Source of the DNA: Pseudopyrenochaeta lycopersici
Taxonomy: Eukaryota > Ascomycota > Dothideomycetes > Pleosporales > Pseudopyrenochaetaceae
Assembly (NCBI GenBank): GCA_003313425.1
Contig: NHZP01000027.1
Coordinates: forward strand, 765,779 to 829,778
DNA length: 64,000 nucleotides
Direction: 5' to 3'
The notes under the pieces were generated by a model. That model did no database searches. It was not told the origin of the DNA and saw only the letters and a list, made by a program, of their open reading frames with translations. A program made the position numbers and the translations under genes. Each line of letters opens with the position of its first letter. The first letter of the stretch is position 1. Below, in pieces: positions 10,857 to 37,000 of the stretch.

Positions 10857-11515
10857 TACAGTTACATGAATAAAGTTTCTACTACTAGCGCACAAGCTAG
10901 CCTTACATGCATTTATACGTAAAACTTTAATGCTATATATCTTAGCTAAAATATAATATAATTATATTTATATTAAGAATTACGTACGTAGTGAATATTT
11001 AGTTTACTAACTTTATACTTATCTATATATAATAATTTATTATAGTATACTTAAAATAAAGTAGTAAATAAGCATTACTAGTATATAATACTAGTACTCT
11101 TTTAATATACTATAAAAGCTATCCTCCTCTTCTTTAGTAGCGCTATAATTATTATACAAAAGATAGAATTTATATATATACTTCTTAAGATACTACTAAA
11201 GGTACTTAATTAAGTTAAGGTTAAGTAAGTATACTAGCTAGTTAATATTAGTAATATAGTACTTATAAAGAAACTTACGGGTTACTATAGCTATATATAA
11301 TATTTATAAAGTAAAAGGCCTTTTATTAAAGCTTAAATAGAATTTTAAGTAAAGTAGCTACTTTTAAGAGTATTAAAATTACGCTCTATTATAATAAGCA
11401 TACGTCTCTACACTTACTTATATTTATTTATCTATATTAATACTTATACTATTTATACTAGTTTCTTATTAGTATTATAAGTTTCTAGTATTCTTAAGTT
11501 CTATTTCTCTTAACG
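10857..11515 (-). mobile_element. RIP-destroyed Tc1/mariner copy (partial)
   Basis: The DNA aligns by eye with the intact Tc1/mariner element at 42154-43503, with C-to-T changes throughout. The left terminal repeat is recognisable near 10857 (TACAGTTACATGAATAAAG versus TACAGTGACCCCGCAAAAG). The part equivalent to the transposase C-terminus lies near 11130-11240, and the part equivalent to 42755-42850 lies near 11420-11500. Similarity fades after about 11515, so the copy looks truncated before the Gypsy insertion. Confidence 0.7.
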
Positions 11516-11890
11516 TATCCTCTAAGTAAGCGCCGCGCATAAGCGAGCGCCGCACCTACTAAGTTTAAGTGCCTCTCTTATCTCAATATATAATAGCTTA
11601 ATACTATACTCTTTAAATACCTTTAAATATAGTAGATATCTAGCTTACTATCTTAGCTATTTATATATTAAATTAGGTGGAACTATATTACTATAGTAAT
11701 CTTTAATATATCTAAAAAAAATAATCTATTACTAATATACTAAAACTACTACTTAATATAATTACTAGCTCATGTAAGGAAGCCTTCAGAGGTAAGACTT
11801 GGATATATAAAATAGATTTAAGCTAGTACTAAAGTAGACTAGTACTATAATATATATTATAATAGTAGGATAGATAAAGGTATAATAGAC
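11516..11890. other. AT-rich relic sequence flanking Gypsy-1
   Basis: No readable gene. A short GC-richer patch near 11530-11560 stands out inside AT-rich DNA. The last five bases (TAGAC, 11886-11890) are the left target-site copy of the Gypsy-1 insertion. Confidence 0.5.
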
Positions 11891-12279
11891 TGTTACGATC
11901 CTGCTGAGAACCCTGCCCCAGCGGCCCCACCTGGACTACGTAGGCATTGGCCCAACAACCAAGATCACGTGACATGCTCAGTTAATTAGTCTAATCAGTA
12001 GTACTGAGCACACTGAGCACACTAAGCAACCTGGATAACCTCTATATATATAGATTACTATAATAAACCCTTATAGATAATTATATTTAACTTAATATTA
12101 TACTCTATAGTATAGTAATAGTAATACTAATTATTCTTAACTCTTAGTACTCTTTATAGAAGCGCCCTCTTACTATCTGAGTATTAAACCCCCTTTTATA
12201 TAGCCCCTTACTCTATCCTAGAGAACTAACCTTATAGTCTTATTAGTTATCCTTACAAATAGTCTTTAAGATCTTTATA
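11891..12279 (+). repeat. Gypsy-1 left LTR
   Basis: 389 bp. Less RIPped than the right copy at its 5' end: it keeps GAGAACCCTGCCCCAGCGGC where the right copy reads AAGACCCTGCCCTAGCGGC. Confidence 0.92.
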
Positions 12280-18200: not shown

Positions 18201-18449
18201 ATTTACTCCTAAAGCTTTATCTTTTAATTAACTAGTTATTTAAACTTAGACTCTGTAACTTGTACGTTATAATGTTACCCTTAATAAAGGCACTTACTAC
18301 ATTTCCCTAAGCAAACATAGACCTTACACACCTAGCTATACTCTATATACGTTGTATACTTCTAAACTATAGCTTCCTTAAAAGAGTAAATAAAATTATA
18401 GAGGCGTTAATAATAAGTAGTGCTAGACACCTATAGTAGGGTAGTAAAT

Positions 18450-18910
18450 AAGTATAGGTTAGGGTTAGGTTAGGTTTAATTATATAAGACCTGTACCTAA
18501 ACTAGCTCTATACCTAATCTTTATACGCTAGTAATAGGTATAGGTTAAGGTTACTGTAAATAGGTTAAGGTTAGGGTTAGGGTTATTAGCCTTAGGTACG
18601 TCTAGGTCTAACTAATTACGTCTTTTTTATATTAGGTCTAATACTAACTAATATATATCTAAAATAGCTAGTTATGCTACTAATTATAGTAAATTATTAT
18701 AATTACTAAGCAACCCTAGTAGATACCCGTAACTAAACCTAAACCTATACGTGCATAACCTTAGCCTTAACCTAACCTAGAGTCCGTGTGACCTAACCCT
18801 AACCTATACCTATAGTCCGTGCGACCTAACCCTAAACCTAACCTACTTATCTATAACCCTATACCTAACCTATACCTATAGTAGGTACCCGTAACCTATT
18901 TACTACCCTA
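18450..18910. repeat. Telomere-like repeat tract in the 3' non-coding part of Gypsy-1
   Basis: Contains GGTTAGGGTTAGG-type motifs on the plus strand (18460-18590, including TTAGGGTTAGGGTTA at 18571-18585) and CCTAACCCTAACC-type motifs at 18740-18900. The two tracts therefore face each other, and a unit starting AGTCCGTG(T/C)GACCTAAC is repeated in the second tract. Confidence 0.75.
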
Positions 18911-19001
18911 ACCTGTATATATTTAGGTATAGCGAGATATAGTAAGGTAAAAGTAAGAAACGCCCGCGTTATATAATAAGCACTAAGGACAGCGCTAGGA
19001 C

Positions 19002-19014
19002 AGGAGGGGGATGG
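19002..19014 (+). other. Gypsy-1 polypurine tract
   Basis: A purine-rich stretch (AGGAGGGGGATG type) directly abuts the right LTR, as expected for the plus-strand DNA primer of reverse transcription. Confidence 0.75.
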
Positions 19015-19402
19015 TGTTACAATCCTGCTAAGACCCTGCCCTAGCGGCCCTAGCTAGACTATATAGGCATTAGCCTAACAACTAAGATTACGTGACGTGC
19101 TTAGTTAATTAGTCTAATTAGTAGTACTAAGCACACTAAGTACACTAAGTAACCTGCATAACCTCTATATATATAGATTACTATAATAAACCCTTATAGA
19201 TAATTATATTTAACTTAATATTATACTCTATAGTATAGTAATAGTAATACTAATTATTCTTAACCCTTAGTTCTCTTTATAGAAGCGCCCTCTTACTATC
19301 TTAGTATTAAACCCCCTTCTATATAGTCCCTTACTCTATCCTAGAGAACTAACCTTGCGGTCTTATTAATTATCCTCACTAATAGTCTTTAAGATCTTTA
19401 TA
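19015..19402 (+). repeat. Gypsy-1 right LTR
   Basis: 388 bp, colinear with the left LTR; differences seen are mostly C/T and G/A transitions, as RIP produces. Confidence 0.92.
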
Positions 19403-20479
19403 TAGACTTCTTCCTATATATAGTAGGACATAGCTACTAGCTATAGATAGTAATTCTGCTTATATAATATATAAGTAAGAAGCGTAACCTTAATAAGGAT
19501 AGGTAGGAGGATAAATAAAATAAGTTTTATTAATGCTAGGTGCAGAATAAAAGTAGAGGTAAGCCCTACTTTTATAGATATAAAATAAGATTACTAAGCT
19601 AAACTATAACTAACTAATAAAAGATAAAATATCCTTTTAAGCTTATAAATTAGATTTATAAGTAAAAGTAAAGAGCAGTAAAGAGGAGTTTTAAAGTAAT
19701 AACCTAGGTTATTACTCTATTTTAACTTTTACTAAAAGTCTTAAGAATCTTAATAGTTTCTATAGTAATTAGAAATATCTGGAACTCTATAGTTACTAGC
19801 TCTATTTACGTACTTTAAGATTTAATCTTAGATAGTTTTATACGCTCTATAAGATAGCTATTTATAATTAAAAGCTTATAAAAGGAGATAATCTTTACAG
19901 CTTAACTTAAGGAAGCTTACTTTATTAGAAAAGGAAGTAATAGTTAATTATATACTTAATCTAGATTAATATAACTTTCTACTTATATATATAGCTTTAT
20001 ATAATATAGCTAAGAAGCTAATATCAATATATAGTAGAAGTTTAAAGTTAAAATAAATTAGCTATCTAACTTTATAAAGTATATAGGTAGTCTAATAATA
20101 TATTTTACTTAAGTATATAATAAGTAGAGAGCTTTTTATAAAGATCTAAAGTTAGTCAATACCTAGATTAAGTAAGTAAAAGAGATAAAAGTAAAGTATA
20201 GTATACTAAATAAAAATATATTTAACTTTAATAAAGCTAGCTTTATAATAAGTAAGATAATAATTTAGCTAGTTATAACTAAGTTAGAAAAGAGAGTATA
20301 GCTAAAGGCTATGTAGCTAAGTAACTATAAGTAAGTAATATTAATTTAAAGTATTAATACTACTAGCTAAGTAATCTTACTTTTTCTAACCTTTACTAAC
20401 TAGTATTACTATTATACTTAGTACTAGAAAGAAGCTATCTTATATAACTAAGCTATCTTAGTAATAATAGCTAGATAAC
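19403..20479. other. AT-rich relic between two Gypsy elements
   Basis: Dense stops, no recognisable domain. The first five bases are the right TSD of Gypsy-1. Probably an older, fully eroded repeat. Confidence 0.5.
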
Positions 20480-22403
20480 TGTTACGAACAGGAAGTAGGA
20501 AGGCGGCGGTTATGAGGATGAGGGAGGAGGCACGGACGACCAACGAGGAGGCCAAGCCTCTGAACTAACTAATAACGCTAGGATCACGTAATCCCAGAAA
20601 ACCCACGCCAAGACGGACTATATTCTATAGGACAGAGACAAACCTAGAAATCCTAGAGAGGGCCTTATAGGAATCCTATAAGATAATTATGTATATAGAC
20701 TCGCATAATATAGCCTTATAGCATATTATAATTAACTTAAGATAATCTATAAGTATACTACTATTCTATACTTCTACTTTTAACCTAACCTACATATCTA
20801 CAGAATACTCTAAAGATATTAACTAGTTAATACTAGTTACTTTATATTATAACTACTTAATTAGATCTTTAATATTTTAATTACCCTTAAGATAAGTAGT
20901 ACTAGCGAATACGTAGCTACCCCTAACTCTTTAACTATAACTACTAAAGGTCGCCTAATTAGTAAACCTACTACGTTTAGTAGTAATAGATAATATCTAA
21001 AAGGATAGTTACTCTAACTTAACCTGTACTTCTATCTCTATAAAGACATTACTAAAAGTAATAAGGCACCTATTATAATTACTTACCTTATAGGTAAAGT
21101 ACTAGACTAGGTTACGCTATAACTAGAATAATATATAAACTAGGAAGTTATTAACGCAGATAATACAGAAATATTTAAAGATTAGGATAAGTTTAAAAAG
21201 TATATTTAGTAAATCTTTAGAATACAGACTAAGAAAGTCGCAGCAGAATAACACATACAGGAACTTAAATAATACATCTCTGTCGCTAACTATACTAATA
21301 GGTTTAAGTAGTATTCTATAATTATTAGATAGGATAATAAGGCTCTTAAATATATATTCTAATAAGGCCTAAAACTATAGGTTAGGGAGGAACTTATAAG
21401 AACAGGATGCGTTATTAAAGACCTTAAAAACCTAATTAATAACTATATAAGAATTAATAATAACCTATATAAACTAAACTAAGAACTATACAGCTATAAA
21501 AAAGGAAGAATAAACTATATAGGTAAATAAAAAGGCTATATTTACTACCCTAGAAACACTTACACTACTAGTTACTATACTTCTAATAAACTAGAACTAA
21601 TATATCTAGATAATATTAATAAGAAGTAAGGGAATAGGAAGGAAGGAAACTAGAAGATAGATATAGAGAAGTTAAAAAGAAATTACTATAATTATAGGAA
21701 GAAAAGATACTTTATAAAGAACTATAGGTAAAAGAATAAAGTTACCTAACTTAAAGTTAATATAATTAAAAACTTTAATAACACCTAATTTAGAGACTAG
21801 AAGGTAGTTACTACACATAACTATAATACTATACCTTTATTACTACTATATTAAGATAATAACTAGATTATAGAAACCTATAGACAGGTTACTCTAAATA
21901 TATAGGAGATTAACTAAAATAATAAGGCTTTAGCAGAACTATATCTAGGGACCCTAGTTAACTAGGACTAACTACTACTTATAGAAAGTATTAAGGAAGC
22001 ATAGGCACTAGATAATAAGATATAGAGAATATAAGGTATAACAGCACTATAGAAAATACACAGCAGGAAATATATATACACGCGATGCTAAAACTAGAAA
22101 ATAAAGTGTAAACTCTTAAACTAGAATAGTATATATTAGGAATACGTAATAGAAAATATTAAGTATATTAGATTCTTTATAGAATAAGCTAAGCAGTAAA
22201 TTAACTAGAAAGCTGCGGCCTAAGTAGAGAAAGGATAAAGACTCTTCTAATATAATTACGACTAGAGAAACCTAAGACATAGACTACTGTTATACTTCTA
22301 CTGCACATATAACTACTATAACTACTATTACGCTATTAAGCTATAAGAAGGACACTTCCTAATACTAAAGGGAGCGTGTAAATAGTAATAGTATAACTAC
22401 TAG
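20480..22403 (+). mobile_element. Gypsy-2 (5' part): RIP-destroyed Ty3/Gypsy element, LTR and gag
   Basis: Starts TGTTACGAACAGG, like the TGTTACGA start of Gypsy-1, inside AT-rich DNA. Gag-like sequence lies near 21170-21320 and a zinc-knuckle remnant near 21680-21730. The element is interrupted at 22403 by Gypsy-3 and resumes at 35137. The left boundary is inferred from the LTR-like start only; I could not find a matching right LTR. Confidence 0.7.
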
Positions 22404-22776
22404 TGTGCCGTTGCACAGGGTACCTGGGCAATCAGGTGATGATAGGTTTCCTTTGTCAGCGAGATTTGATGATAAGACTTGGAGATGCGAGAGATCTCAA
22501 CGTCATGCACCAAAACCTCATGCACCACACACTACGAGAATTCACTTCAAAACTGAGATTTTGCAAAGTAGCTAGTGCATTAGTTACGTCAATTCAATAA
22601 GATTTCAGACCATTTTGTTTATTACTTTTAATCAGGCTCCATACTTACCTTCGTTTCTAGCAGACTACACAGGCAGGGCTGCTCCTGTTATTTACGCACG
22701 CTTAGATTCCAACGTTACCTCTCATTCACAACACCAGAACTGCGGGATTGTACCGAACCACCTTGTTAACTCCACA
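22404..22776 (+). repeat. Gypsy-3 left LTR
   Basis: Differs from the right LTR at four positions only. In all four the left copy has A where the right copy has G, always after T (TpG to TpA), which is RIP read on the opposite strand. Confidence 0.96.
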
Positions 22777-22781
22777 TATAA

Positions 22782-22797
22782 TGGCGAAGCCCAAGGG
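22782..22797 (+). other. Gypsy-3 primer binding site (candidate)
   Basis: TGGCGAAGCCCAAGGG begins six bases after the left LTR. PBSs normally start TGG, complementary to a tRNA CCA end. The tRNA was not identified. Confidence 0.5.
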
Positions 22798-22959
22798 GCA
22801 CAACGGTCTGTTCTAGTTAGGCTATAGCTAATGAGAGCAGAAAAAGCCTACATGGCATTAAACTGTCAACGTCGAAAACACAAATATGAGAGCGCTACAT
22901 TGCAATACAGAGATCATAGGATTACCTAGAAAGAGCTGGGTGTCTGTTTGACCCTAACA

Positions 22960-23112
22960 AACCTTTGAGAGGGATGGCGCTGTTGCGGCCAGCCTTCAGA
23001 ACCTTTGAGAGGGATGGCGCTATTGCGGCCAGCCTTCAGAACCTTTGAGAGGGATGGCGCTGTTGCGGCCAGCCTTCAGAACCTTTGAGAGGGATAGCGC
23101 TGTTGCGGCCAC
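22960..23112 (+). repeat. 40-bp tandem repeat (about 3.8 copies) in the Gypsy-3 leader
   Basis: Units start at 22960, 23000, 23040 and 23080, each beginning AACCTTTGAGAGGGATGGCG. They differ by one or two G/A or C/T-type bases. Position between PBS and gag suggests a leader element (packaging or translation), but that is inference. Confidence 0.93.
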
Positions 23113-23446
23113 CCCCTCTACATTTTTGGAGCTAAGAGTTGACAGGGACCAGCTCTGTTGAGGCTGTATCCTTGTTATCTTGCTATGACAAATTAAGACT
23201 TCCTATAACATGAGCGGAAGCTAACTTAGTAGTAGTAGGACAAGAAGACGAACAAGAATAAGACAACAGAAAACAAAAAACGAGAACAACTATAAACGAT
23301 CAGGAAACAATTCAGAAGTAGTACAGTATCAGATTTTAGTCAATTATCAGCGTTAGCAAGGAACTGCCTAGTAGTTGCAGTCTCCTTATTCAGTTATACT
23401 GAAGGGCTGCAGCAGCCTATTCAGGATTCAGCCTTCAGCCATCCTC

Positions 23447-24613
23447 ATGGCTGAATCGACACCAGATTCGCTGTCATTCAGATCAGATCTTACGCCGGCT
23501 ATTGAGGTCATTGAGAAACATACTATAGATACCAGCAAAGTACTTGTGCCTATAAGGCCGGCAAGGAAAGACTTTCTATTTACAGGAAAAGACGTCACTG
23601 AGTTCCTAGATGACTTCAATCGCCAGGCAGACAATAGCGGCTATAACAACTATCAAAAGATAAGAATCCTTCCAGACTTCTGTGACACTATGTGCAGAAG
23701 CTTCATTAAGAAAATGAGGCCATACAGGGTACCAGACTGGAAGAAGCTTCAAGAAGCAATGAAAGAGCATTGGCACGATCAAGATGTAGCTCAACGCATG
23801 GGAACGCGAGCGTTCCTGGAGACCTATGTTTCTGAAACGTCAAGAAAATTCCCAGGACTATCTGAGTATTCAACCAACTTCGCAGCGTACAGTGACGCTT
23901 GCATTGAGACAGGCCAGCTACATAGGACAGAGGCTGGCTTCTTTTTCGCCAGAGGCCTTCCAAGAGAAGACCAAGATATGATCTTCATCCACATGCATGA
24001 AGGGCCGATTCCAGACAAGCTAGAGAGTTTTGATATTAAGAAGATTTACACGTATCTCAAGCGCGTGTACCGCCAGAGAGAGGGGATGAAACAGATATCC
24101 CCTAGTCATGCAGAAAGAGAGGCTAAGCTTGCACACCAGATCCTGGATCAAGAAAAGAAAACATCAACAGCTGAGCAGCTGAAAGATGCAGTTGATGAGT
24201 ATAAGAAAAGCAAGGTTCAAGAGGAAGCTAGGCCTACTCTTCCACCTAGTATAGATCCAGAGGTTCAAGACCTTATTTCAGCCCTCGGCGACTGGAAGAT
24301 TAGCCTAGCTGAGGTCAACGAGATGATGGTTCATCCCAAGCTTGGTCAGATTCTGAGGAACCCAGCTACGTACGCGTACTTCATCGGCCGAGTCGTCACA
24401 AGAGATGATGCCAAGCAGCCACTATCGGAAAGGAATGATGGCTCGTACATGACGACGGCTCCTCGCAACTTGAATCCTCAGCAAGGCGCGATCACTATCC
24501 AAGGCCGTGAATATCGAAACACTTGTAATATGTGCAACCTCCCTAGTCACATTGCGAGAGAATATGAGCTATATCAGCTGCTTTTGCATCTTAGCTGGAT
24601 TAGCTTTAAGTAG
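23447..24613 (+). pseudogene. Gypsy-3 gag (frame interrupted)
   Basis: Nucleocapsid/capsid polyprotein of the retrotransposon. From the ATG at 23447 the frame shows a capsid-like segment (FTGKDVTEFLDDFNRQAD at about residues 45-65, then RMGTRAFLETYVSE and LSEYSTNFAAYSDACI). A zinc knuckle at the end reads CNMCNLPSHIAREYE: the CX2CX4HX4C pattern with the last Cys replaced by Tyr. The TAG at 24613 is followed by open sequence in the same frame, so gag originally ran on toward the protease. Confidence 0.85.
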
Positions 24614-26470
24614 AACAGGGAAGTTGGATATAAGACTTACTATTTTAGTCCTTCGCACAAGAGGTTAGGGCAAATCCAAGGAACTGCACCCCAAACGCTG
24701 CAGCTCCATTGGTTGAAACAGAAAATTCGGGAGTATTACAGAGTCACTGACGATGTCCTAGATCAGCCAGCGTCGGCAGTATGTCCAGAGAAGTTTGATG
24801 GAGTAGACTCAAGGCCTGCTCAATATCGAAAGCTTAGACTACTAGCTGTGCAGCAACAGAAGGTGGTTAGTCCCAATACGAATACGATTGCAGAAGATAG
24901 ATATAGCAGGATAGCCATAAGCCCGGCCAAGGACCTACTGAACTTTCAGAACGTCAGGATATTGCCAAGAGGCTCGACTGAAGCGTGTTTTGCCCTCGAT
25001 GAGGTCACATCTCAGGACATTATTCTTAGTGCTTTTAAGGAAGGAGCAGTGAATGCTGGCTCAACTTATGCAGCAACACGCTCTCAAACGCGTCAGAATG
25101 TCGGGAAAGATCCAGTTCTTAAGAAAGTCAGGCAGAGCAAAGTTCAGAAGCAAGCTCCTGCCAAACCTCCTCATTCTGAACAACCAAAGCGAGTCACAGT
25201 CAAGGACCATCGTATGCCTGTTATGAGGGGCAACACTGCATTCGAACCAATGGATATTGAGGAGTTTGAACGAGTGGAGCCGATTCCATTCGCCAGCCAA
25301 GCCCATAACAAGCCATTCTCTCTCATACAGCCTCTGGACGACGATAGAAGCTTTCAGGATTTAAAAGCTGAGCCTGAATTTGTTAGTCAGAACAAGAAAA
25401 AGAAGAACCAGAATGACGGCCTTACTGACACGGAGCTCCGTCATTTACTAGGCCCGCATCCAAACCGTATCGCCACCACCATGCTACGTCAGGAGGTGCG
25501 TGGTGTGACTTTTAGGGACCTTATAAGCTAACATCAGCTTCAAAAATAAGTTGGAAATATATTGAAAGCGATTAATGAGCCTGCCGCGTCGTTAGCCAGC
25601 GTGAACGCCGTGGAATTGAGTATTGGGCCGGCCAGCCAATCAGCAATCGCCAGGTCAGCTAAGCGAGACCTGTTGGAACCTGATTGGCTGACACTGCAGT
25701 GCCTTACCCCGCACAACCCCGCGTCCGCCCATGTCATTGGGGATGTTCGGAGGCATTTTTCTGATGAAGAAAAGGTTAAATCAAATCAAGTAGAGACGGT
25801 TGGTCTCGAAAAAGGACCGAATTTGGAGCTTAACTCAATACAATTTAGGACTTTCAATGCACAAACTAGGCATGAAGCCCCGGGAACATATGACACTTGG
25901 CATGAAGCTTCAGTTGATCCTACTGAACAAGAAGCCACGATAATTCGAAAGAAGATAGGCATAGCCTACGTGCAGTGTGACCTTCCAACCTGCTGGGCCT
26001 CATTCAATGGGCATGCAGTGAAGTGTCTCATTGACACTGGCGCACAGATGAACCTTTTGAGATATAGTGCGGCCAAGGCATTGAAGCTTACATATGAAGA
26101 CTATGAGCAAGGTAGCTCGCATCAAGATGGAGTGGTTACTGCAAATAGAAGCACTGATCCTTTTGTGGGAACTGCGTGGAGTGTCCCAGTCAAAGTAGGA
26201 GAGGTGACTGTTGTCAGTCACTTCAGGATCGTTCGAAACCTGACGAGATCAGCGATTTTAGGTGGACCTTAGTGCGCTTCAGCAAGGTTATTAATTCAGT
26301 ATAACGTATATAGAAGGATCACGTGCAGGATCATTTCTAAGAATGGAGACAGAAACGCCGTCTTCATAGCCTCTGATCCTGCTCCGCTGCATCCGAGAGA
26401 CCATGTGCCGACTCCTAAAGATAAGGAAAACATGTAGCAGACACCCTTTCTAGGGAGGAGTGTCTGGATT
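24614..26470 (+). pseudogene. Gypsy-3 gag-pol linker and aspartic protease
   Basis: Same frame as gag, interrupted by TAA/TAG codons (near 25530, 25548 and 26270) that look like RIPped Gln or Trp codons. The retropepsin core is seen as CLIDTGAQMNLL near 26022-26060 (catalytic DTG), with the C-terminal SAILGGP near 26250. The upstream linker is basic and rich in Lys/Gln. A frameshift near 26470-26530 separates it from the RT frame. The protease would process the polyprotein, but as read it cannot be made intact. Confidence 0.8.
25634..25689. repeat. Hairpin element copy 1 (inside protease linker)
   Basis: A 56-nt stem-loop: AGCCAATCAG pairs with CTGATTGGCT, and an inner CAGGTC pairs with GACCTG. 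A second copy lies at 30402-30455. Confidence 0.8.
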
Positions 26471-26529
26471 TAAGTGGAAGATACCTAGGGCGATGTTTCA
26501 GTTCAGAATCTTATTTATCTTATGCTTAG

Positions 26530-28482
26530 GTTAAGTATATTCAGGAGGCTGAGTTTGTGAAAGCTTCTGTTGGATTTGGCGAATTTTCACCTATTTTTAC
26601 GACTAATGATAAGCAGCAATTTGAAGAATAGGCAAAGCAAGTAATAAGCTATAGAGTTGGAGCCTCTGAGGATCCTTTAGCTGTGCGAGAATTGGAGTCT
26701 TTTTCAGTTATATGTGAACTTAACCGTCAGGCGCAATAGGAAAAGAGAAGGAAGTACACAGGCAGTCAGGTCAATACCCTGCATAAGAGGGTAGCTGACA
26801 AGGTGCGACCTGTGGATATTCCTGCGGCATCAGATATTAAGGAGTTTGGGCGTGAGGATTGGAAGCGACATGCTGTTAAACTGCAACTCTTAAGAAAAAG
26901 TCTGAGACCTCCTGATATAGGGCCTTTTGATCACCTTTTTGAATGCAGACATGCAGCATTCCCACGGGGCACAAGATTGACACTAGAAAGGCTAGCCTCA
27001 CAAAAGTTTGGATCTGAGTTAACAAAATTAGAAGTTCAGCTATTTATTGAAATGTTGATGAACAGAGAAGGCGCGATCGCTTTTACTTTCTCTGAGACAG
27101 GACGAATTATTAAGGATGTATGTCCTCCATATAAGATACGGACTATTAAACATAAAGCTTGGCAAGAAAAATCGTTCCCAATAGCGCGAGCTGTTGAGGA
27201 AGAGGTAGTTACAATGTTCAATGACAGACTCAATAGAGGGGTACTGGAAAGATGCGCCAGTCAGTACAGAAACTCATGGTTTCTGGTCAAAAAGAAGGAT
27301 AAGAGTCATCGGATAATACTTGGGTCAATTAAGATGAACGCAGTGTCTCTCAGGGATGCTAATCTGCCTCCGACAGCAGATGAATTCTCTAAGCGTTTTG
27401 GTGGATGTCGTATTCTGTCTCTCATGGATCTATTCTCAGGATATGACCAGATCACACTTCATCCAGACAGCAGAGACATGACTGCCTTTCATACGCCAGT
27501 TAGTTTGCTTCGATACTGTACGATGGTTCAAGGCGCGACCAACTCAGTTGCGGTCTTTCAGCGAGTAGTTACAAAGATTATAAAGGATCATTAGCCATAT
27601 ACTATTCCTTTTATAGACGACATTACTGCTGGCGGTCCTAAAACTGACTATAGAGGAGAAGAAGCATTTCCTGGAGTAAGAAGATATGTGTTGGAACACA
27701 TTCAGCAGCTAGACAGGGCTCTAGCTGACGTAGAAAGAGCTGGAGCTACAATTTCAGGCAAGAAGTGTCATTAGGGAGTCTCCAGATTGGGGGTAGTTGG
27801 ATATGAAGTTACTGCGCAAGGAAGACATCCAGATTAACAGAAAGTAGCCAAGATTCTAGATTGGCCAGAATGCAGAAACGTGAAAGAAGTAAGGGCGTTT
27901 GTGGGTATCTGTGTCTACTACAGGATATAGGTGCCTAGCTTTGCTATTCGCGCGAAGCCCCTGTTCCAGTTAATAAGGACTGGCGTTGAATGGACATGGC
28001 AGGGGGCTCAACAAGAGGCTATGCGTACCTTAAAGCAATACATTACTTCAGCCCCAGCGTTAGCGAGTCCTGATTACAAGAATAGAGGTATGCTTTTTGT
28101 GGCAGTAGACGCGAGCAAGGAAGGCGCAGGCGCGTCTCTTGAACAGATTGGAGCAGACGGAAAAAGACATCCGTGTCGATTTGAAAGTACAATATGGTCA
28201 AAAGCTGAGAGCCTCTGGCACTCAACAAAGCTTGAGTGCAAGGCGGTATTATGGGCGCTAAAGAAATTCAGAACCTGGCTATATGGACAACATTTTACCA
28301 TTGAAACGGACGCGCAGACGCTCATTCATCAACTCAACAGATCATCGCCTGACGTTCCTGGGTCAGTCCAAAACAGGTGGCTCGCAGCTATCCTTACCTG
28401 GGACTTTGACATTAAGCATGTTCCTAGAAAGAAGAATGTCGTTGCTAATGCGTTGTCACGTTATCCGAAGCCAGAAGGATAG
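26530..28482 (+). pseudogene. Gypsy-3 reverse transcriptase and RNase H
   Basis: RT blocks in order: YRNSWFLVKKKDKSHRIILG (27270-27330), LMDLFSGYDQITLHP (27420-27470), a QGATNSVAVFQRV primer-grip region (27530-27570), and the active site PFIDDI (27607-27624; FIDD in place of YLDD, both Asp present). RNase H follows: FVAVDASKEGAGASL, then LECKAVLWALKKFRTWL, then ETDAQTLIHQL and DIKHVPRKKNVVANALSRYP. Stops at 27592-27594, about 27772, 27838, 27928 and 28480 are TAG in an otherwise single open frame, consistent with RIP. Confidence 0.9.
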
Positions 28483-28689
28483 GAACAGCCAGACAAGACT
28501 GAAGACGACCTCGAAGATTTCATTGAAAACCTGGTCGCTAACCTCGAGTTTGCCTCGCCTGCTGAGACGAGTAGGGTACTGAATGAGCAATACTCAGACG
28601 AGTCAGAAGCGATTACTCAGTTCTTAACAAGATTTAAGAAGCCTGAAGGCCTCACGAGGGCACAACTTCAAGCATAGAAAAAGAGGGCG

Positions 28690-30177
28690 ATGAATTTCTT
28701 TGTGCGAGAAGGCTATCTGTTCCGGAAGTCTATAAGGAATATAGCCATTCGTCGAGTTGTGGATGATCCTAATCTTAAGACTGCAGCTATATGGGAAGTA
28801 CATCAACAGATTGGTCACAGAGGAGTGAACGGCGTCTATTTAATGCTTACTCAACAATACTGGTGGGAAAGGATGCATGAGGAGGTGCGACGCACGATTG
28901 CATCATGCGAACAGTGCCAGCGAAGATCATCAAGTCGTAAGCAAGAGATGCTGACGAATACCTACTGTCACGCGTTATGGGAACGAGTTACTATGGACGT
29001 TGTTTACATGCCGCATTGTCAAGGAAAGAAATTCATCGTGATTGCACGAGAATACCTTAGTAGATGGCCAGAGGCACGAGCAATAGCTGACAACAAGTCA
29101 TCCACTATCGCTAAGTTTTTATATGAGGAAATCTTGTGTCGCTGGAGCATGACAAGGACGCTTACTGTGGACGGCGGGCCTAATTTCAGAAAGGTAGTCA
29201 AAGCCCTTGCTAAGATTTATCGTATTAGGAGGATCCAGGCATCAGCATACAACCCTCAGGCTATAGGAAAAATTGAGGGTGGTCACAAGCCAATATGCAA
29301 CGCACTGGCAAAGCTTCCTGGACCTTAGGTTAATAATCTTCCGACAGTATTGTGGGCAGACAGAATTTCTACTCAGAGTTAGACTGGATATTCTCCTTAT
29401 CAGTTGGTCACTGGTCAGAATCCAGTACTTCCGATTGAGCTTGCTCTTCCAACATGGCAGACATTGCCATTCAGACAAGTAACATCAAGAGGCCAGTTAT
29501 TAGCAGTGCGAGCTATGCAGCTAGATTTGAGAGATCAATTTCTTAAGGACGCAGTGTCAAGAACTAAGCGCCTACGACGCGAAAAGAAGGAATATTAGGA
29601 CGATCACAGGGAGATTCGTCAAGAAGAAATCAAAGACGATGACTTCGTACTGATGTGGGACTCAGCTAGAGACATTAACATGTCAAGAGACAAGAAGCTT
29701 GCGAGCAGATGGCTGGGACCATACAAAGTCTTTCATGCTGACCAGGATAAAGGCAACTATCAACTCATAGACCTTGACGGCACGCGATTCAGAAACACTA
29801 CCCCAGGATGGAGACTTAAACTGTGGGTACCTCGAGATGAAAGCAAGGTCGCTCAGGAGCATCGAGGTCGTGCAAAACTATGGGATCCTTCGTTGTGGGA
29901 TGCTGAAGCCGACTTTTCACCACCGCCTGCTCAATCTGACAACTCTTAAGATAATAAGTTCACAGTCATTGAAAATCCTAACCAAGACGCGATTCAGTCA
30001 CAAGAGAAAGAGAATAATCCTCCTACAGACTTGGATTCATCTGAAGATATGATACAGCCAACTGCGCGCAGCCATCCTATCATCATACCAAGATCTTTAA
30101 CAGAGACTGAGAGACGACAATACGTTCGAATACCTGATTCAGAAATTGGTTCTGACTCAGAAGATAAGCTTGCTTAA
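28690..30177 (+). pseudogene. Gypsy-3 integrase
   Basis: Inserts the cDNA copy into the genome. The HHCC zinc-binding domain (EVHQQIGHRGVNGVYLML, then SCEQCQ) is followed by the DDE core: Asp in MDVVYMP, Asp in TVDGGPNF and Glu in AIGKIEGGHK. The C-terminal part contains GYSPYQLVTGQNPVLPIE and WLGPYKV. No chromodomain is evident, unlike Gypsy-1. The frame continues from RNase H through several TAG/TAA stops (near 28675, 29326, 29380, 29596, 29947) to a final stop at 30177. Confidence 0.88.
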
Positions 30178-30918
30178 GCCCAGGGGACGGGCTTTCATCT
30201 TGAAGCAGGGGAGGGGCTGTATTTCCTTTGTCAAATTTTCGCATATTTTTACACATTCAGCATCACACACACGCAGCGCAACCTCCCAGACACATAAAAA
30301 TGAGTCAAAACTGAACGAAATATCATTTAGAGCCGCTGGGAGGTCGATCTCCTGGTTGCGCGATCGAAAATAGTGGAGAAACCAGGGTGTTGAAGGATCT
30401 GGCCAATCAGCAATCGCCAGGTGAGCTTAGCGAGACCTGCTGAAATCTGATTGGCTGGACAACTTGATATCTGCGCCAACAGCAGCAACGCAACCACGAG
30501 ATCACGGAGCGACAATTCGAAGATGCAGAATCAATTGAAGGAGGTGGAAGATGAGATGATTGATATTTTTAAGTGTGAAGGTGAGTTTATAGCTGCGTTT
30601 GGCAGTAAGATGAGACCCGCTCAGGAAACGTTCCTGAGTGGCCAACTCTTAAGAGGACCCGCTATGCCAGCCAATCAGGCAACAGGAAGGAGTTAAAATG
30701 ATAGCAACTTCACCTTTTACTACGTCGTCGAGCCTTGGCGGGGCTTTCAAGTAAAGTTAGGGAGGGAAAGATACCCTCCGCCGCTCGAACCCCCTCCAAA
30801 TCTCGAGCCTGCGGTTGATCCTACAGGGCCTGAGTTTCTCTTTCTTGCTTCCTGTCACTATCTATTGAAACTTTCTGAGGTAGACACACGAGTGCCTGTC
30901 AGGTACAAACTTCAAGCG
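30178..30918. other. Gypsy-3 spacer between pol and accessory gene
   Basis: About 740 bp without a convincing gene. It contains hairpin copy 2 and a CT/GC-mixed stretch. It could hold an internal promoter or splice acceptor for the accessory gene, but nothing in it proves that. Confidence 0.5.
30402..30455. repeat. Hairpin element copy 2 (Gypsy-3 spacer)
   Basis: GCCAATCAG (30402-30410) pairs with CTGATTGGC (30447-30455). The loop half closely resembles the copy at 25634 (CAATCGCCAGGT.AGCT.AGCG.GACCTG). Confidence 0.8.
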
Positions 30919-33900
30919 ATGTCACAGCCGCCTCAGACACCCAAACAGCCTGGGAAGCGTCCACTCCCACCGTCAAACCCAAATCCTCAACCAACCACAA
31001 CTACAATTGAGCCTGCGCCGACGGAGATCGTACGATTTACTAGCAAAGAAGCTATCAAAGACTACGGAACCGAGCTTAAGCGTTATAGTAACGTTGAAGT
31101 CCCTTGGCACGCAGGGATCACAGTAGACACTTGGGTTCGAAGCTTGCTGCAAGTCTCGCCTGTTGAACAGAAGGGCATGGTAGATGATTGGATGGTGGCC
31201 TTAGCGACTTACTTTGACAAGACTTCGACCCTTATTATCGCGACTAGAGAATTCCTGAAAGGAAGACCGAGCCTGATGTCGCAGTATGGAGGCATCGCTG
31301 CTTTTGAGCAGCAATATCCTATACTCAAGGACATAGACACTTACAAGAAGAAGAGGAAAAAGGAGACAGAGAGCGCGTTTGCCTATCTGGACGAACACCA
31401 TCAGCATGTACTGAGGCAGGTTCTCATTCCATATTCCGTTCAGGTGGTGTACTCGCACTCTGGCGTGACGGCAGTCCAATGGTTACTGCGCAGGACCTCG
31501 CTGGACAACCTCGCTCCCTTCCTTAACACAGCTCTTTACTATCGACGACAATCTGCGAGGAGGAGGCAGGATGGATTTGTTAACATCACTGACTGGGAAG
31601 AAGTACGTCAGCAGATAGCCAACATGCCTGCTTGGATAAAGAAGTATTATGAGGATGGCAACGCCGAGTTGCGCGGCATCGTTATCAAGCACAAGATGCC
31701 TGCCTCCAAGATCACAGCCGACAATATAGACACGCGCTCTAGACAAGGGTACCTTGACTGGATGTTCTGGACAGAGGCAATCAAATGGTATGGAAAGCAA
31801 TTGCATGCAGGGACGAAGCTTCCTCTGAATGTGCCTATTCCACCTGAGTGGCTGCGGGAGAATCATTTCAGGTATCATGAGCAGACTAAGTTACTTCTTC
31901 CTGCTGCTGGCGATAGCAAGAACGATTCTGCGACTGAGGCTGGCGTCCAGACGACAGCCTTAGCGATAACTGCCTCTGAACGTGCTGGAAGCCAAAGCCC
32001 AGCCACTTCATTAAACATTGGAGGGCGCACGCAAGTCATTAAGCCTTCTAGTCTTAGTTATCGACGCACAAGCAAAGAATTTGGAAGCGACATCCAGAAT
32101 GAGCTAGAGAAGCTAGGCGAGCCTCGAACGGACAGGCTGTCTGTTACAGCTGAAAGCATTCAAGAAATCCAGCCAGAAGAACGACGTTTGAGAGGAAACA
32201 GGCGCACTCAACAACAAGTCAAGGCAGTAGAGGCCCTTCAAGAGAAATTCCGTCTTGGGCGGCGTCAGAGATTTCCCTCTACGCAGCCTCTCGCTCCAGA
32301 TGAGATTCGCGTGAGAGACTCAGAGTCAGTGAGGCAGTTACGCGAAGAGTCAGAAATGCTGTTAGCAACACTTGACGACAGTATTGACGTTCGAGACTCA
32401 ATTGAAGAAGACATCTCGCTTGAAACCAGCATCGCAGTGAAATCGCGCAAGGGATGCAACTGTATGAACAAACAGTCTGCTCTAGTCAAGATGACCGCGT
32501 CGCTCACGTCTAGGAAGTTGAATGATGGTGAGCGCGTCCAGCTGATTGATACCTGGTATCAAGAGTGTGTGAATTTCAGCACTCTCAAGGATAGGCAGGG
32601 TAGTCAGGTATTCGACCATCGCAGGGTGTGCTGGCAACATTACCGTTACGTGGCTGGCAAGATAGGCCTGCTTACTCGAAGCCTCAGCATTTCAAACACA
32701 GTTCAGCTGCTCAAGATACTATACCATCGTCAGGATAGGTGGGGTCAGCTTCAATCGGACCCAGTAACTCAAGTTCTGTTCTCAGCCCCGTTTCGAGGAG
32801 ACTATACGCATCAAGACCTGAAGAGCTATCGTTATCGCCCGGCAAAAGTTCGAGTCCAAATTGACTGGGACGAAGTTGCTAAGGCTCTTGATTGGGGAGT
32901 ATATGTTAAAGCATTCAAGGAATACGGCAGCATTACCTACGACGCCTTCAGCTGGATTTTTAAGGATCCTGAGCTAGTCTCAATCCTTGATCAAAGTTTT
33001 GACATGTACCTCTACCACACGCGGCTAATTGATAGCAAAAGCAACCTTGGCTGGTGTCGGGTAATGTATCATTCGTTGATGCAGCAGCTTGTGCGAGGTG
33101 ACGTTGAATACTGGCTGCTGTACGCAGTCTTGCGAAAAGAGCCTAACCTGATTTCCTACCCTTACTACACGAAATACACCAAGCCTGGGGATAGGACTTA
33201 CTTCCGTCACGTTGACTTGAACATCTCTGAGGCTGTATACTCAGGCAGAGGCGTGGACATCATCCAAGGAAGCGTCTCTTTTGACGATGAAGATAAGGAC
33301 AACTGCACGCAGATACTACGTGGCTTTCATAATATCATCCACAAGTACCAGAACTGGCGAGAAAACTCAGGACTCAAGAACTCCACTAGTTACATTGAGG
33401 GATGGGACGATAAGAGGGACTGGCCAGAGAGTTGCAGTGCGAAATTCCCTGACGTTGAATGGTTCAGCCAGCCTTGCAAGGCTGGTCACGTCCGCATCTC
33501 TGATCCTAGGCTGCCTCATGGATCCACTGGGCCTGCAACCAAGCAACGACGAACTATCTTGCCTTAGTTTGTCAAGGTGGAAGAGGACATAACTACGATG
33601 GAGATTCCTGAGATGGGCTCCTATCAAGAGCTCGCTGCTGCCTTTCAAAGCTTGACTGCCGCGCCAAAGTCACCGTCTGGACACTCAAATCACTATGGCG
33701 GCGTCAAGTAGGCCTTTCCTGGAGATATTACACCAGTGTACTCGTCAAACATTGCTAAGGCTGTGAACTGTCAGCTGAGATGGGATTCTCCGCTGGTTTT
33801 AGAGGAACTGACTGACTTGTTCACGGATCAGCCTGACCCTGGTTTGATCCGTCAATTTATCAAGGATACTAGGAAGGCTACGGTAAAGATGATCAAAGAG

Positions 33901-34380
33901 CATTGGGTTGTCTGCCAGCATCATGAGAAGCTTGCTTTTAGGGAAGACAAAGACCTCGGCGTACCTAACAGGTCGTTCTTCTCAAACGAAGGTATGAATC
34001 CAGCTCAGGAAGCTGAGTGGTGGAAGCACGATAGGCAGGTTGAACAACGCACTGCCCTAGACAAGGTTCTTGAGGAGCTTTCTGATAATCCTGATGGCAA
34101 GGCTGCTAGGATGCTGGACAGGAAGGAGAAACCGAGGCGCCTGTCCATCCGAAGCGCTACTGAGTCTCCACAGACTTCAACTCATGCCGGTTCACGAAGG
34201 TCGTCATCGCAGCAACAGGCGCTAGGTCAGTATTCGCCTGGTCAGTCACCTATGGGACCTCCTCCTGCGCCTTCTCGTCCTGGGCAAGCGCAACCTGACA
34301 TGAGCGCGTCAAATCTGCATGCACCGTCGCAGACTCCTCGTCGTAGCAAGAGGATTGAGGAGATCAAGAAGAAGAAGTAA
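30919..34380 (+). pseudogene. Gypsy-3 accessory gene: ~1,150-codon protein with a 2OG-Fe(II)-dioxygenase-like C-terminal domain
   Basis: One frame from the ATG at 30919 to a stop at 34380, broken by two TAG codons only (33565-33567, and just before 33712), each consistent with a RIPped CAG. Residues 1-30 are Pro-rich; 60-330 are largely helical; 360-520 are charged and polar. Around residue 740 onward the order YTKYTKPGDRTYFRHVDLNI, GSVSFDDEDKDNC.Q.LRGFH, then DPRLPHGSTGPATKQRR appears. This resembles a double-stranded beta-helix dioxygenase: HxD iron ligands (His764, Asp766), distal His867, 2OG-binding Arg877/878. The C-terminal tail (34100-34380) is Ser/Pro/Gln-rich and ends in a Lys cluster. 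No membrane segment or envelope-like feature is seen. The protein family is not one I can name; the enzymatic call is inference. Confidence 0.6.
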
Positions 34381-34623
34381 GGCTTGACAGACTCTGATTG
34401 GCTGAGTGCCTCCAGGTCGTTTGAGGGATACTAGGACGATGGCATACTTGCTGGCGTCTTCAACAGTGAGGTTGAGGCGCATTTTCTTTTGTTTTTCCTA
34501 CTGTCTTTGGGAGATTTGACGATGAAGTGCGGGAGTTCATGAAGGAACCTGCACAATTACGAGGACTGCTCCTCCTGCAGAAATGCAGCCTATGCTGCCT
34601 TCCCTTTGTTCGTGGGGCAACAA

Positions 34624-34650
34624 TTTCTTTCTTTCTTTCTTTCTTTCTTT
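34624..34650. repeat. (TTTC)n microsatellite
   Basis: About six TTTC units just upstream of the right LTR of Gypsy-3. Confidence 0.95.
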
Positions 34651-34747
34651 CCTTTTCCCAGTTCTCTTCTCCTCCTGCTGGTAGTTCTACTTGCGAGGAG
34701 AAGGAACGATAAGTAGGAGTTGTGAGCTCAATGGGACTGAGCTCGAA

Positions 34748-34759
34748 GTAGGGGAGGTT
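34748..34759 (+). other. Gypsy-3 polypurine tract
   Basis: A purine run (GTAGGGGAGG type) ends at the right LTR boundary, as expected for plus-strand priming. Confidence 0.7.
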
Positions 34760-35132
34760 TGTGCCGTTGCACAGGGTACCTGGGCAATCAGGTGATGATG
34801 GGTTTCCTTTGTCAGCGAGATTTGATGATAAGACTTGGAGATGCGAGAGATCTCAACGTCATGCACCAAAACCTCATGCACCACACACTACGAGAATTCA
34901 CTTCAAAACTGAGATTTTGCAAAGTAGCTAGTGCATTAGTTACGTCAATTCAATAAGATTTCAGACCATTTTGTTTATTACTTTTAATCAGGCTCCATAC
35001 TTACCTTCGTTTCTAGCAGACTGCACAGGCAGGGCTGCTCCTGTTATTTACGCACGCTTGGATTCCAACGTTACCTCTCATTCACAACACCAGAACTGCG
35101 GGATTGTGCCGAACCACCTTGTTAACTCCACA
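34760..35132 (+). repeat. Gypsy-3 right LTR
   Basis: 373 bp; carries the unmutated G at all four sites that differ from the left LTR. Confidence 0.96.
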
Positions 35133-35136
35133 CTAG

Positions 35137-36415
35137 CAGGATAATTACATTAACTACTTATAGGATAAATAAACAATAAATTATTTGCTAGGATATAACG
35201 ACGAGTATACTATAAACTAAATTTTATTATAAATAAGTAATATACTAATAAATTATAGTAGACCTATATAAATCTAGGATATAAACGCTATAAGCTAGAA
35301 AAGGAAGTAAACAGTTTTAAGGAAAATTCTTTTTTAGATAGAAACTAGAAACTAAACCTTCCTATAGTAAGAAGGCTAGAACTAGGTAAGGGATTTGTCT
35401 ATAACTAGACAGCACTAATAAGCAGTATTAGGCTATCTAACAAAAGGAAGAGAGTCTCTTCTAACTTAGAATAAAACTCTAAGGAAAGGAGCTAAAGGCA
35501 CTAATAGATTCTAGATTATAAGTAAACTACATCTCTAAGACAGCTATATTAAAAGCAGGGCTATAACTTATCTTAAAAAAATACTCTACTAAATAATAGT
35601 AGTAAATAGAAAATTAGGAGGGATGATAACCTACAAGGTTACTACTAGCCTTAGCCTAGCCTCTAAAATATACTAGGTTAGACTAGACGTCTTTAGGACG
35701 GCTGCCTACAATATTATACTAGGACTACCTTAGTTAAGATACTATAACCTAGTAATTAACTAGACAAAATAAAGAGTGTCTGTACGTATAAAAGATAAAC
35801 GCGAGAATACTTACGTAATAGTTATATATCTTAGTAGATAAGAAGATAATAATAAGTATTAAGCCTTCGCGAAAAGCTAAGAAACAGCTACTTTATTAGC
35901 AGCTAGTAAAGAACACTAAGAAGAATAAAGAGTTTATTACTACTCCTAAGATCCTAAAAGAATATAAGGAATTTAGAGATATATTTACTAAAAAGGTAAG
36001 AAGAGGAGTACTACTAAAACACTAAGAATAGGACTATAAGATAGAACTTATAGAAGGTAAGCAGCCTAGGTTCGTACTAATATACTTCCTAAGCGATTAT
36101 AAGCTAGGCGCCCTAAAGAAATATATTAATAAAAATTTAGTAAAGGATTTTATTAAGAAATCTAAGTCTTTAGTAAGATATCCTGTTCCGTTTATACTAA
36201 AGAAAGATAGAGTACTAAGGTTATGCATTAACTATAGAAAGTTAAATAACATTACTAAGAAGAATTACTACCTGCTACCTAATATATAAGAACTACGCGA
36301 TAGATTAATAAGAGCTTAATACTTTACTGCGCTAGACTTAAGAGGAGCGTATAACCTTATTAGAATAAAAGAAGGAGAAGAATAAAAGACTGCCTTTAGA
36401 ACAGGGATGCATAAA
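35137..36415 (+). mobile_element. Gypsy-2 (3' part): protease and reverse transcriptase relic, truncated
   Basis: Continues Gypsy-2 after the Gypsy-3 insertion. A protease trace (ALIDS...NYISK) lies near 35495-35530. RT blocks at 35960-36415 read EFRDIFTKK, RYPVPFILKKDRVLRLCINY, RKLNNITKKNYYLLPNI and FTALDLRGAYNLIRIKEGEE. Stops and AT bias show strong RIP. The element breaks off around 36415, before the YLDD box, and no right LTR follows. Confidence 0.85.
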
Positions 36416-36785
36416 ATTTAGTAATTAGTAAATCTAGTAATTACTTAGTAATTACTAATTACTAATTACTAATTACTAAAGGTATACTTAGTAATTACTA
36501 AATTATAAATTAGTAAAAATCTAGTAATCTATATTTTATATTATATAGTTACTAGTAGTAAAATCTAGATTCTTTAACTATTAGAGACTAGAATATATTA
36601 ATAAATTATATATTAAAAAAAAAGTACTTAAATTTAAATAAAAAATCTTTATTAATCTATTAAACTAACTAAATTTATAAAACTAACTAAATAAACACTA
36701 CTATTATATATTAATAATATTTAGACTATAATATCTTATTATTCTATATATTATAGTATAGTAATATATAATATTATAATTATAT
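36416..36785. repeat. Low-complexity AT tract
   Basis: Reiterated TAGTAATTACTAA-type palindromic motifs (36418-36500), then featureless AT-rich DNA up to the sharp GC boundary near 36786. No gene. Confidence 0.75.
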
Positions 36786-36985
36786 AGTAAACAAGCAGAC
36801 GGCAAGCCTGCGTCAGGAAATGGACGCCCCCCGTTTGGGTAATCCGGGCCTCGCTTATGGATTCGCCCTACGCCCGAACAGGTAATCGGCCTCGACGGTC
36901 ACCCATAAAACGCCCTTCCTCCGCCGTCATTTTCGCTCCTTCTCCTCAACCTTTTCTCTCTATTCCTATCCCTTCATTCGCACCG

Positions 36986-37000
36986 CCCCCCCCCCCCCCC
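36986..37000. repeat. Poly-C run (15)
   Basis: Uninterrupted cytosine homopolymer in a pyrimidine-rich stretch. Confidence 0.95.

What the first reader, a model, noticed from the sequence alone, without database searches (positions are those of the whole stretch)
30919..34380. Ty3/Gypsy retrotransposon carrying a putative 2-oxoglutarate/Fe(II) dioxygenase gene
Downstream of integrase, Gypsy-3 has a ~1,150-codon gene. Its C-terminal region shows FRHVDLN (HxD, His764 and Asp766), GSVSFDDED...GFH, and DPRLPHGSTGPATKQRR (His867, Arg877/878), the order and spacing of phytanoyl-hydroxylase-like double-stranded beta-helix oxygenases. It has only two in-frame stops in 3.5 kb, whereas pol has about ten, hinting at slower loss or a different RIP exposure. 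Dioxygenases of the TET/JBP group ride on some fungal DNA transposons (KDZ); I know of no such enzyme on an LTR element. A modified-base or anti-silencing role is speculation.
Basis: partly seen in the sequence, partly recalled or inferred. Interest (0 to 1): 0.9.

Follow-up and report, generated by a model that had tools for sequence, protein, structure and literature searches.

The report
Retrotransposon carrying an iron oxygenase gene
A fungal "copy-and-paste" jumping gene family carries, beside its own copying machinery, a third gene for an iron-dependent oxygen-using enzyme whose active site is conserved in relatives from many fungi, which suggests that the element uses chemistry of its own, perhaps against the cell's defences.

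Summary
The finding is real. The frame at 30919-34380 is the third gene of a 12.7-kb Ty3/Gypsy LTR element (22404-35132; LTRs 98.9% identical; CTAG duplicated at both ends). In this genome 40 of 51 scored copies of the gene lie 2.9-3.1 kb downstream of the element's RNase H. A second, divergent LTR family has the same gene order.

The C-terminal domain scores just over Pfam's PhyH cut-off and is predicted (pLDDT 92) as a PhyH/DUF1479-type double-stranded beta-helix. H764, D766, H867 and R877 are kept in 134/136, 135/136, 131/132 and 130/131 aligned rows; relatives with species names are Pezizomycotina (six looked up, others recalled). Between the two families the enzyme core is about as constrained as RT and integrase (dN 0.31, 0.28, 0.25; dS saturated).

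So a catalytically equipped 2OG/Fe(II) oxygenase is a selected part of these elements. Its substrate is unknown; I favour a nucleic-acid or chromatin mark (anti-silencing), unproven. An LTR precedent exists (orchid Gypsy AlkB) in another oxygenase family. My paper searches listed no report of this one.

The parts
22400..22403 (.). target-site duplication CTAG, left
   Evidence: read from sequence; matches 35133-35136
22404..22776 (+). 5' LTR (TG...CA), 373 bp
   Evidence: blastn of the two ends, 98.9% identity over 373 bp; found at matching offsets in other copies
22960..23154 (+). 40-bp tandem repeats in the 5' leader
   Evidence: the repeat finder D2; 5'-LTR offsets differ between copies, some by about 40 bp
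23447..26269 (+). gag plus aspartic protease frame (stops at 24611, 25529, 25547; frame end 26270); protease domain about 26000-26263
   Evidence: Pfam gag-asp_proteas E 1.2e-8
25633..25692 (+). 56-60 nt hairpin, copy 1, inside the gag-protease frame
26803..27594 (+). reverse transcriptase piece
   Evidence: RVT_1 E 5e-10
27931..28482 (+). RNase H
   Evidence: RT_RNaseH_2 E 7.2e-26
28690..29328 (+). integrase piece (H2C2 zinc-binding domain; the core profile was not listed for this broken piece)
   Evidence: Integrase_H2C2 E 6.8e-16
29653..29949 (+). SH3-like end of integrase (weak match)
   Evidence: SH3_Tf2-1 E 0.057, below cut-off; similar stretch in the four other copies read
30400..30459 (+). 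hairpin, copy 2, between pol stop (30175) and the ATG of the oxygenase gene
30919..34380 (+). third gene: PhyH/DUF1479-type 2OG/Fe(II) oxygenase; open to 33564, stops at 33565 and 33709
30919..32268 (+). N-terminal part (residues 1-450), largely helical in the homologue model, fast evolving
   Evidence: P0003 model; A/B identity 31.8%, dN 0.85
32455..32640 (+). C513-x-C515 ... C571-x2-H574, possible zinc site
   Evidence: 69/69, 69/69, 76/76 and 74/76 homologues; in the locally trimmed set 40/42, 42/43, 108/108, 107/107
32869..33564 (+). double-stranded beta-helix core (residues 651-882)
33208..33216 (+). His764-x-Asp766 codons (Fe ligands by homology)
   Evidence: 134/136 and 135/136 rows
33517..33549 (+). 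His867 (third Fe ligand) to Arg877 (2OG carboxylate, by homology)
   Evidence: 131/132 and 130/131 rows
34745..34759 (+). polypurine tract (by eye)
   Evidence: sequence directly before the 3' LTR
34760..35132 (+). 3' LTR
35133..35136 (.). target-site duplication CTAG, right

Best explanation
The gene is an integral third cistron (after gag-protease and RT-RNaseH-integrase) of a fungal Ty3/Gypsy LTR lineage. It encodes a large protein: a fast-evolving, largely helical N-terminal part, a Cys/His site that may bind zinc, a PhyH/DUF1479-type double-stranded beta-helix that binds Fe(II) by H764/D766/H867 and 2-oxoglutarate by R877, and a conserved C-terminal extension. SHOWN by computation: linkage to LTRs and pol in two divergent families, the predicted fold, near-invariance of the catalytic residues, purifying selection on the core. 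INFERRED: that it is an active oxygenase in intact elements, and that it serves the element. MOST LIKELY role (about 0.4): made during the element's expression, it oxidises a methyl or other mark on nucleic acid (genomic copies, cDNA or RNA) and so eases silencing or hypermutation; oxidation of a chromatin, capsid or host protein is nearly as likely (0.35). The stated confidence covers identity, linkage and selection for catalysis, not the substrate.
Against: No activity or expression data. Solved PhyH-type neighbours listed are mostly small-molecule enzymes, and no profile match to TET/JBP or AlkB was listed. The elements here are heavily RIP-mutated anyway (C>T at 41.6% of CpA sites against 1.6% of CpT, 19 copies against the window copy). 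dS is saturated, so the single ratio of 0.12 is rough. Within one family (20 of 51 copies) transversions were too few: singletons 1/4/8 by codon position (p 0.058), shared 4/2/2 (p 0.61). LTR context could not be read for homologues of other fungi.
Confidence: 0.85

Rival explanations
1. The oxygenase hydroxylates a protein (Gag, integrase, a histone or a host silencing factor) rather than a nucleic acid, to help assembly, nuclear entry, site choice or escape from silencing.
For: A large helical N-terminal domain and Cys/His site could be protein-binding; 2OG oxygenases acting on proteins are common (general knowledge).
Against: Nothing found points to a particular protein; the fast-evolving N-terminus (dN 0.85) would fit an arms race with a host factor but equally other roles.
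Confidence: 0.35
2. It is a metabolic (small-molecule) PhyH-type enzyme carried as cargo, useful to the host or neutral to the element.
For: Listed solved neighbours are mainly antibiotic, amino-acid and osmolyte enzymes (SnoN, GriE, EctD, KanJ).
Against: Same gene order in two divergent LTR families and constraint near that of RT and integrase; the places listed in this genome are near copies of one another or of family B, and no intact stand-alone ortholog was listed (only the best candidates scored).
Confidence: 0.15
3. The beta-helix is a non-enzymatic scaffold, as a related fold appears to be used in the trypanosome RNA-editing complex.
Against: Iron and 2OG residues are kept in 130 to 135 of 131 to 136 rows.
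Confidence: 0.05
4. A host gene was transduced once by chance into one element and merely hitchhiked in the amplification.
For: LTR elements can pick up host sequence (general knowledge); within-family data do not by themselves show selection.
Against: Two LTR families whose oxygenases are 61% identical in the core both carry it, with third-position excess and dN near that of RT.
Confidence: 0.03

Closest known systems
Orchid (Phalaenopsis) Ty3/Gypsy elements with an AlkB-type 2-ODD ORF (Gypsy_Pa_2799; PMC9289625)
   Same: Ty3/Gypsy element with a separate ORF after gag-pol that carries a 2OG/Fe(II) oxygenase at its C-terminus; multi-copy.
   Different: AlkB-type domain (PFAM13532) close to plant RNA demethylases, 25-kb elements nested in the Tat family, in that screen found only in Phalaenopsis; here PhyH/DUF1479 type, 12.7 kb, fungal, with relatives in several fungal classes and an N-terminal Cys/His site.
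Fungal DNA transposons and Helitrons with TET/JBP dioxygenases (PMC12730594)
   Same: Fungal mobile element that encodes a 2OG/Fe(II) dioxygenase as an accessory gene.
   Different: DNA transposons and Helitrons, TET/JBP family; [quoted passage not shown] No TET/JBP profile match was listed here.
PhyH family, Pfam PF05721, and solved relatives such as SnoN, GriE, EctD, FtmOx1
   Same: Fold, motif order HxD...H...R, marginal profile match.
   Different: About 10-20% identity to solved members, extra N-terminal domains, element-borne, unknown substrate.
DUF1479 (YbiU of enterobacteria, Gig2 of Candida albicans)
   Different: 10% identity, no profile match listed; that these are host genes of unknown function is from recall and entry titles.
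'Phytanoyl-CoA dioxygenase' proteins of giant viruses (Tupanvirus, Chrysochromulina ericina virus, Pithovirus)
   Same: Best named matches among predicted viral structures (E 7.5e-8 to 1.7e-7).
   Different: 14-15% identity, stand-alone viral genes, not on retroelements.

Membership tests
Ty3/Gypsy LTR retrotransposon | paired LTRs with TG...CA and target-site duplication | tested here: met
   98.9% over 373 bp; CTAG on both sides; family B 328 bp, 100%, CTAC
Ty3/Gypsy LTR retrotransposon | order protease - RT - RNase H - integrase | tested here: met
   Pfam matches in that order, integrase by its H2C2 domain only
PhyH (PF05721) | profile score over the curated cut-off | tested here: met
   22.9 bits (882 aa) and 25.9 bits (303 aa) against 22; 14 of 23 A1 members match at E <= 0.1; of 8 homologues 4 over the cut-off, 2 weak, 2 none
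PhyH / 2OG-Fe(II) oxygenase superfamily | HxD...H iron triad and Arg about 10 residues after the distal His | tested here: met
   H764 134/136, D766 135/136, H867 131/132, R877 130/131 rows
PhyH / 2OG-Fe(II) oxygenase superfamily | double-stranded beta-helix fold | tested here: met
PhyH / 2OG-Fe(II) oxygenase superfamily | 2-oxoglutarate-dependent oxidation of a substrate | not testable with these tools
   needs biochemistry
DUF1479 | structural similarity over core and flanking helices | tested here: met
DUF1479 | sequence profile match | tested here: inconclusive
   no DUF1479 row at E <= 10 for the window protein or E <= 1 for 8 homologues, but HMMER's filters drop most matches above about 0.1
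TET/JBP dioxygenase | sequence profile match | tested here: not met
   no such Pfam row for the window protein (E up to 10, filters apply) nor in 23 A1 members at E <= 0.1; that Pfam holds a TET/JBP model is from recall
TET/JBP dioxygenase | fold | tested here: inconclusive
   not among the rows shown; a family not listed is not excluded
AlkB (orchid Gypsy type) | sequence profile match (PF13532) | tested here: not met
   no such Pfam row for the window protein (E up to 10, filters apply) nor in 23 A1 members at E <= 0.1

The most novel reading that the evidence does not exclude
An old lineage of Ty3/Gypsy retrotransposons, spread through the Pezizomycotina, has a third enzyme as a standard part: a PhyH/DUF1479-type oxygenase that acts on nucleic acid or chromatin and blunts the RIP/DNA-methylation defence for which these fungi are known. 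It would be a retroelement-encoded counter-defence from an oxygenase family not, to my knowledge, linked to nucleic acids before.
Probability: 0.25. Interest if true: 0.92.

Novelty: new variant of a known kind. Interest (0 to 1): 0.75.

Why it matters
Extra conserved domains in LTR retrotransposons are considered rare (abstract of PMC9289625). One whose core is about as constrained as reverse transcriptase, in two LTR families and with relatives in at least five classes of Pezizomycotina (look-ups), points to a step in the life cycle or a fight with the host that is not in the textbook scheme. [quoted passage not shown]

Tried and rejected
First protein search with the whole 882-aa frame found nothing because its words come from the first 500 residues; repeating with residues 580-882 gave 78 relatives. 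PDB sequence searches gave no dioxygenase: 2 weak rows and 12 weak rows. NCBIfam: nothing relevant. Viral and prokaryote contig scans: no relatives. The family search for PhyH in the own genome found 8 places, none at element copies: the element's domain was too divergent for that first look.

Idea that the gene decays more slowly: stop density is lower than in RNase H in 18 of 21 copies, but the codons that can become stops are fewer too; slight at most. Rfam on the element: no match. TET and AlkB chains are not named in the 50 rows shown by VIA-align, which excludes nothing.

Error corrected: the gag query was one base out of frame, so the GAG row there is void; one search gives the right frame (23447) and shows that gag and protease share a frame. 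Covariation of the hairpin is weak: 5 of 500 shuffles reach the score, 8 of 17 pairs never vary, and some double changes are what RIP would make on both strands. The shorter CCAATCA motif is less telling than the 10-mer: 15 in the window, 8 of them in the element.

Full report
Observation. The frame 30919-34380 reads as the finder described: 882 codons open to 33564, stops at 33565 and 33709, end at 34378. Numbering of the motifs is right: H764, D766, H867, R877/R878. The RT-to-integrase frame has ten stops from 27592 to 29947.

Element. A 373-bp direct repeat, 98.9% identical, lies at 22404-22776 and 34760-35132. It starts with TG and ends with CA, is flanked by CTAG on both sides, and the right copy is preceded by a purine tract. 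Between the repeats are gag, aspartic protease, RT, RNase H, integrase (by its H2C2 domain) and the frame in question. Gag and protease share a frame; RT to integrase is read in another. So the gene sits inside a structurally complete LTR element of 12,729 bp.

Linkage. The own genome (62.7 Mb, 188 contigs) gave 52 matches to the 882-aa protein, 51 places when the two pieces at C31 are joined; only 51 of 232 candidates were scored. RNase H of the element lies on the same strand within 8.5 kb upstream in 46 of 51, at 2.9-3.1 kb in 40 of 51. Of the 40 LTR matches scored (298 candidates), some sit at both expected offsets for 9 of the 51 and at one for 4. The gene therefore multiplied as part of the element. 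Conversely, 64 of the 110 RNase H places compared (150 listed) had no scored oxygenase partner; given the cap this does not show that they lack it, and one search found it beside several.

Second family. RNase H hits with few stops led to G000:C74 (L009, L010) and C23 (L011, L012). Both have LTRs of 328 bp (100% and 97.9% identical) and the same order, with the oxygenase gene after integrase; C74 has CTAC on both sides. The LTR of this family gave 41 matches (40 of 158 candidates scored); besides C74's own two, three more are shown at 100%, which suggests recent movement. The copy read is itself broken (11 stops in the 1,135 codons read). All eight key residues (four catalytic, four Cys/His) are present in it.

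Relatives. Two searches of the 5.8-billion-protein set gave 78 and 78 hits, 137 different proteins. Named ones include Alternaria, Clathrospora, Plenodomus, Periconia, Paraphoma, Xylona, Penicillium, Aspergillus, Onygenales, Coniocarpon, Caloplaca, Xylographa, Lobaria, Vezdaea, Glutinoglossum, Geoglossum and Choiromyces. Six were looked up and all six are Pezizomycotina, in five classes plus Vezdaeales; the others are so from my own knowledge. In an alignment of 138 rows (window, family B, 136 proteins; P0122 had no match and was dropped) H764 is kept in 134 of 136, D766 in 135 of 136, H867 in 131 of 132, R877 in 130 of 131 rows with a letter there. In the first 78 homologues C513, C515, C571, H574 are kept in 69/69, 69/69, 76/76 and 74/76; in the larger, locally trimmed set in 40/42, 42/43, 108/108 and 107/107. 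A quick tree of 119 rows (those under 230 residues left out) puts the window gene and family B in one group of 15 (SH-aLRT 84, not strong) inside one of 24 (99); 13 proteins of other sources fall within the group of 15, which suggests, but does not show, that these too are LTR-borne.

Selection. Between families A and B the core (651-882) is 60.8% identical, with differences at codon positions 1, 2, 3 of 0.30, 0.19, 0.56; the N-terminal 450 residues are 31.8% identical with 0.56, 0.46, 0.68. dN is 0.31 for the core, 0.28 RT, 0.25 integrase, 0.18 RNase H, 0.52 C-terminal part, 0.59 Cys/His part, 0.85 N-terminus; dS is saturated or nearly so. So the catalytic core has been held about like the element's own enzymes. 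Within family A (window and 19 of the other 50 copies) 81-97% of the differences from the window copy are C>T or G>A (C>T at 41.6% of CpA, 18.8% CpG, 2.9% CpC, 1.6% CpT sites), the mark of RIP, and transversions are too few for a test.

Mechanism. Shown: a selected, catalytically equipped oxygenase is part of two LTR families. Inferred: it works for the element. I rank nucleic-acid marks first (0.4) because element-borne 2OG oxygenases of known or proposed role act there (orchid Gypsy AlkB: m6A demethylase in vitro, PMC9289625, abstract, passages and section 13 seen; fungal TET/JBP transposons, PMC12730594, passages and section 4.2 seen) and because the named hosts belong to the group in which RIP is widespread (same section). 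Protein hydroxylation is close (0.35), metabolite chemistry less likely (0.15). The solved neighbours are mostly small-molecule enzymes, which counts against the first choice. The fast-evolving N-terminus would fit a contact with a changing host factor.

Expression. A 56-60 nt hairpin occurs twice in the element, inside the gag-protease frame (25633-25692) and between pol and the oxygenase gene (30400-30459), and at the same two places in family B. Its arms hold CCAAT boxes; AGCCAATCAG occurs 5 times in the window, all in the element, against 0.17 expected, though the shorter CCAATCA is less specific (8 of 15 in the element). The 11 perfect genome sites of CCAATCAG-N(30-45)-CTGATTGG have the element's hairpin sequence; the backward control has none. 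It may be an internal promoter or an RNA signal for the downstream gene; this is inference, and covariation is weak.

Literature. Searches for phytanoyl-CoA dioxygenase or PhyH with retrotransposons, and for dioxygenases on fungal LTR elements, listed no title or abstract start reporting this gene on an LTR element; most listed papers were not opened. Opened for passages only: 'LTR Retrotransposons in Fungi' (PMC3248453), which has no 'oxygenase' but speaks of complex transposons with many additional domains in a supplementary figure that I could not see; PMC10799480 and PMC4112212, no 'oxygenase'; PMC5872316, only a host dioxygenase. Of PMC6338049, a review of accessory domains, part 1 of 4 was read. 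Subscription papers, preprints and Repbase were not searched.

Verdict. Real, well supported as an LTR-borne 2OG/Fe(II) oxygenase of PhyH/DUF1479 type; substrate open; a new variant of a known kind.

Noticed in passing
window 25633-25692 and 30400-30459; L009:7249-7309; L010:1821-1881: A 56-60 nt hairpin with CCAAT boxes in its arms occurs twice per element, at the same two places in two divergent LTR families; copies within a family resemble each other more than across families. In the gag frame the encoded residues differ between families, so the nucleic acid, not the protein, seems conserved.
   Followed up: partly
window 22960-23154: A 40-bp tandem repeat in the 5' leader; distance from 5' LTR to the oxygenase gene differs among copies, some by about 40 bp, so the number of units probably varies.
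   Followed up: no
window 26270-26803: RT is read in a frame shifted from the protease in the window copy and the four other copies read; the kind of frameshift was not worked out.
   Followed up: no
G000:C19:1071605, C28:534888 and others: The RNase H search also listed 17 weakly similar places (29-30% identity) inside open frames of 843-1,228 codons without stops, so another, younger element family may have escaped RIP in this genome.
   Followed up: no
window 10001-22400 and 35133-37000: AT-rich flanks (18-34% GC in 10001-22000, 30-32% in 35001-37000); by eye they look like other, heavily RIP-mutated elements in which this one is nested; not tested.
   Followed up: no
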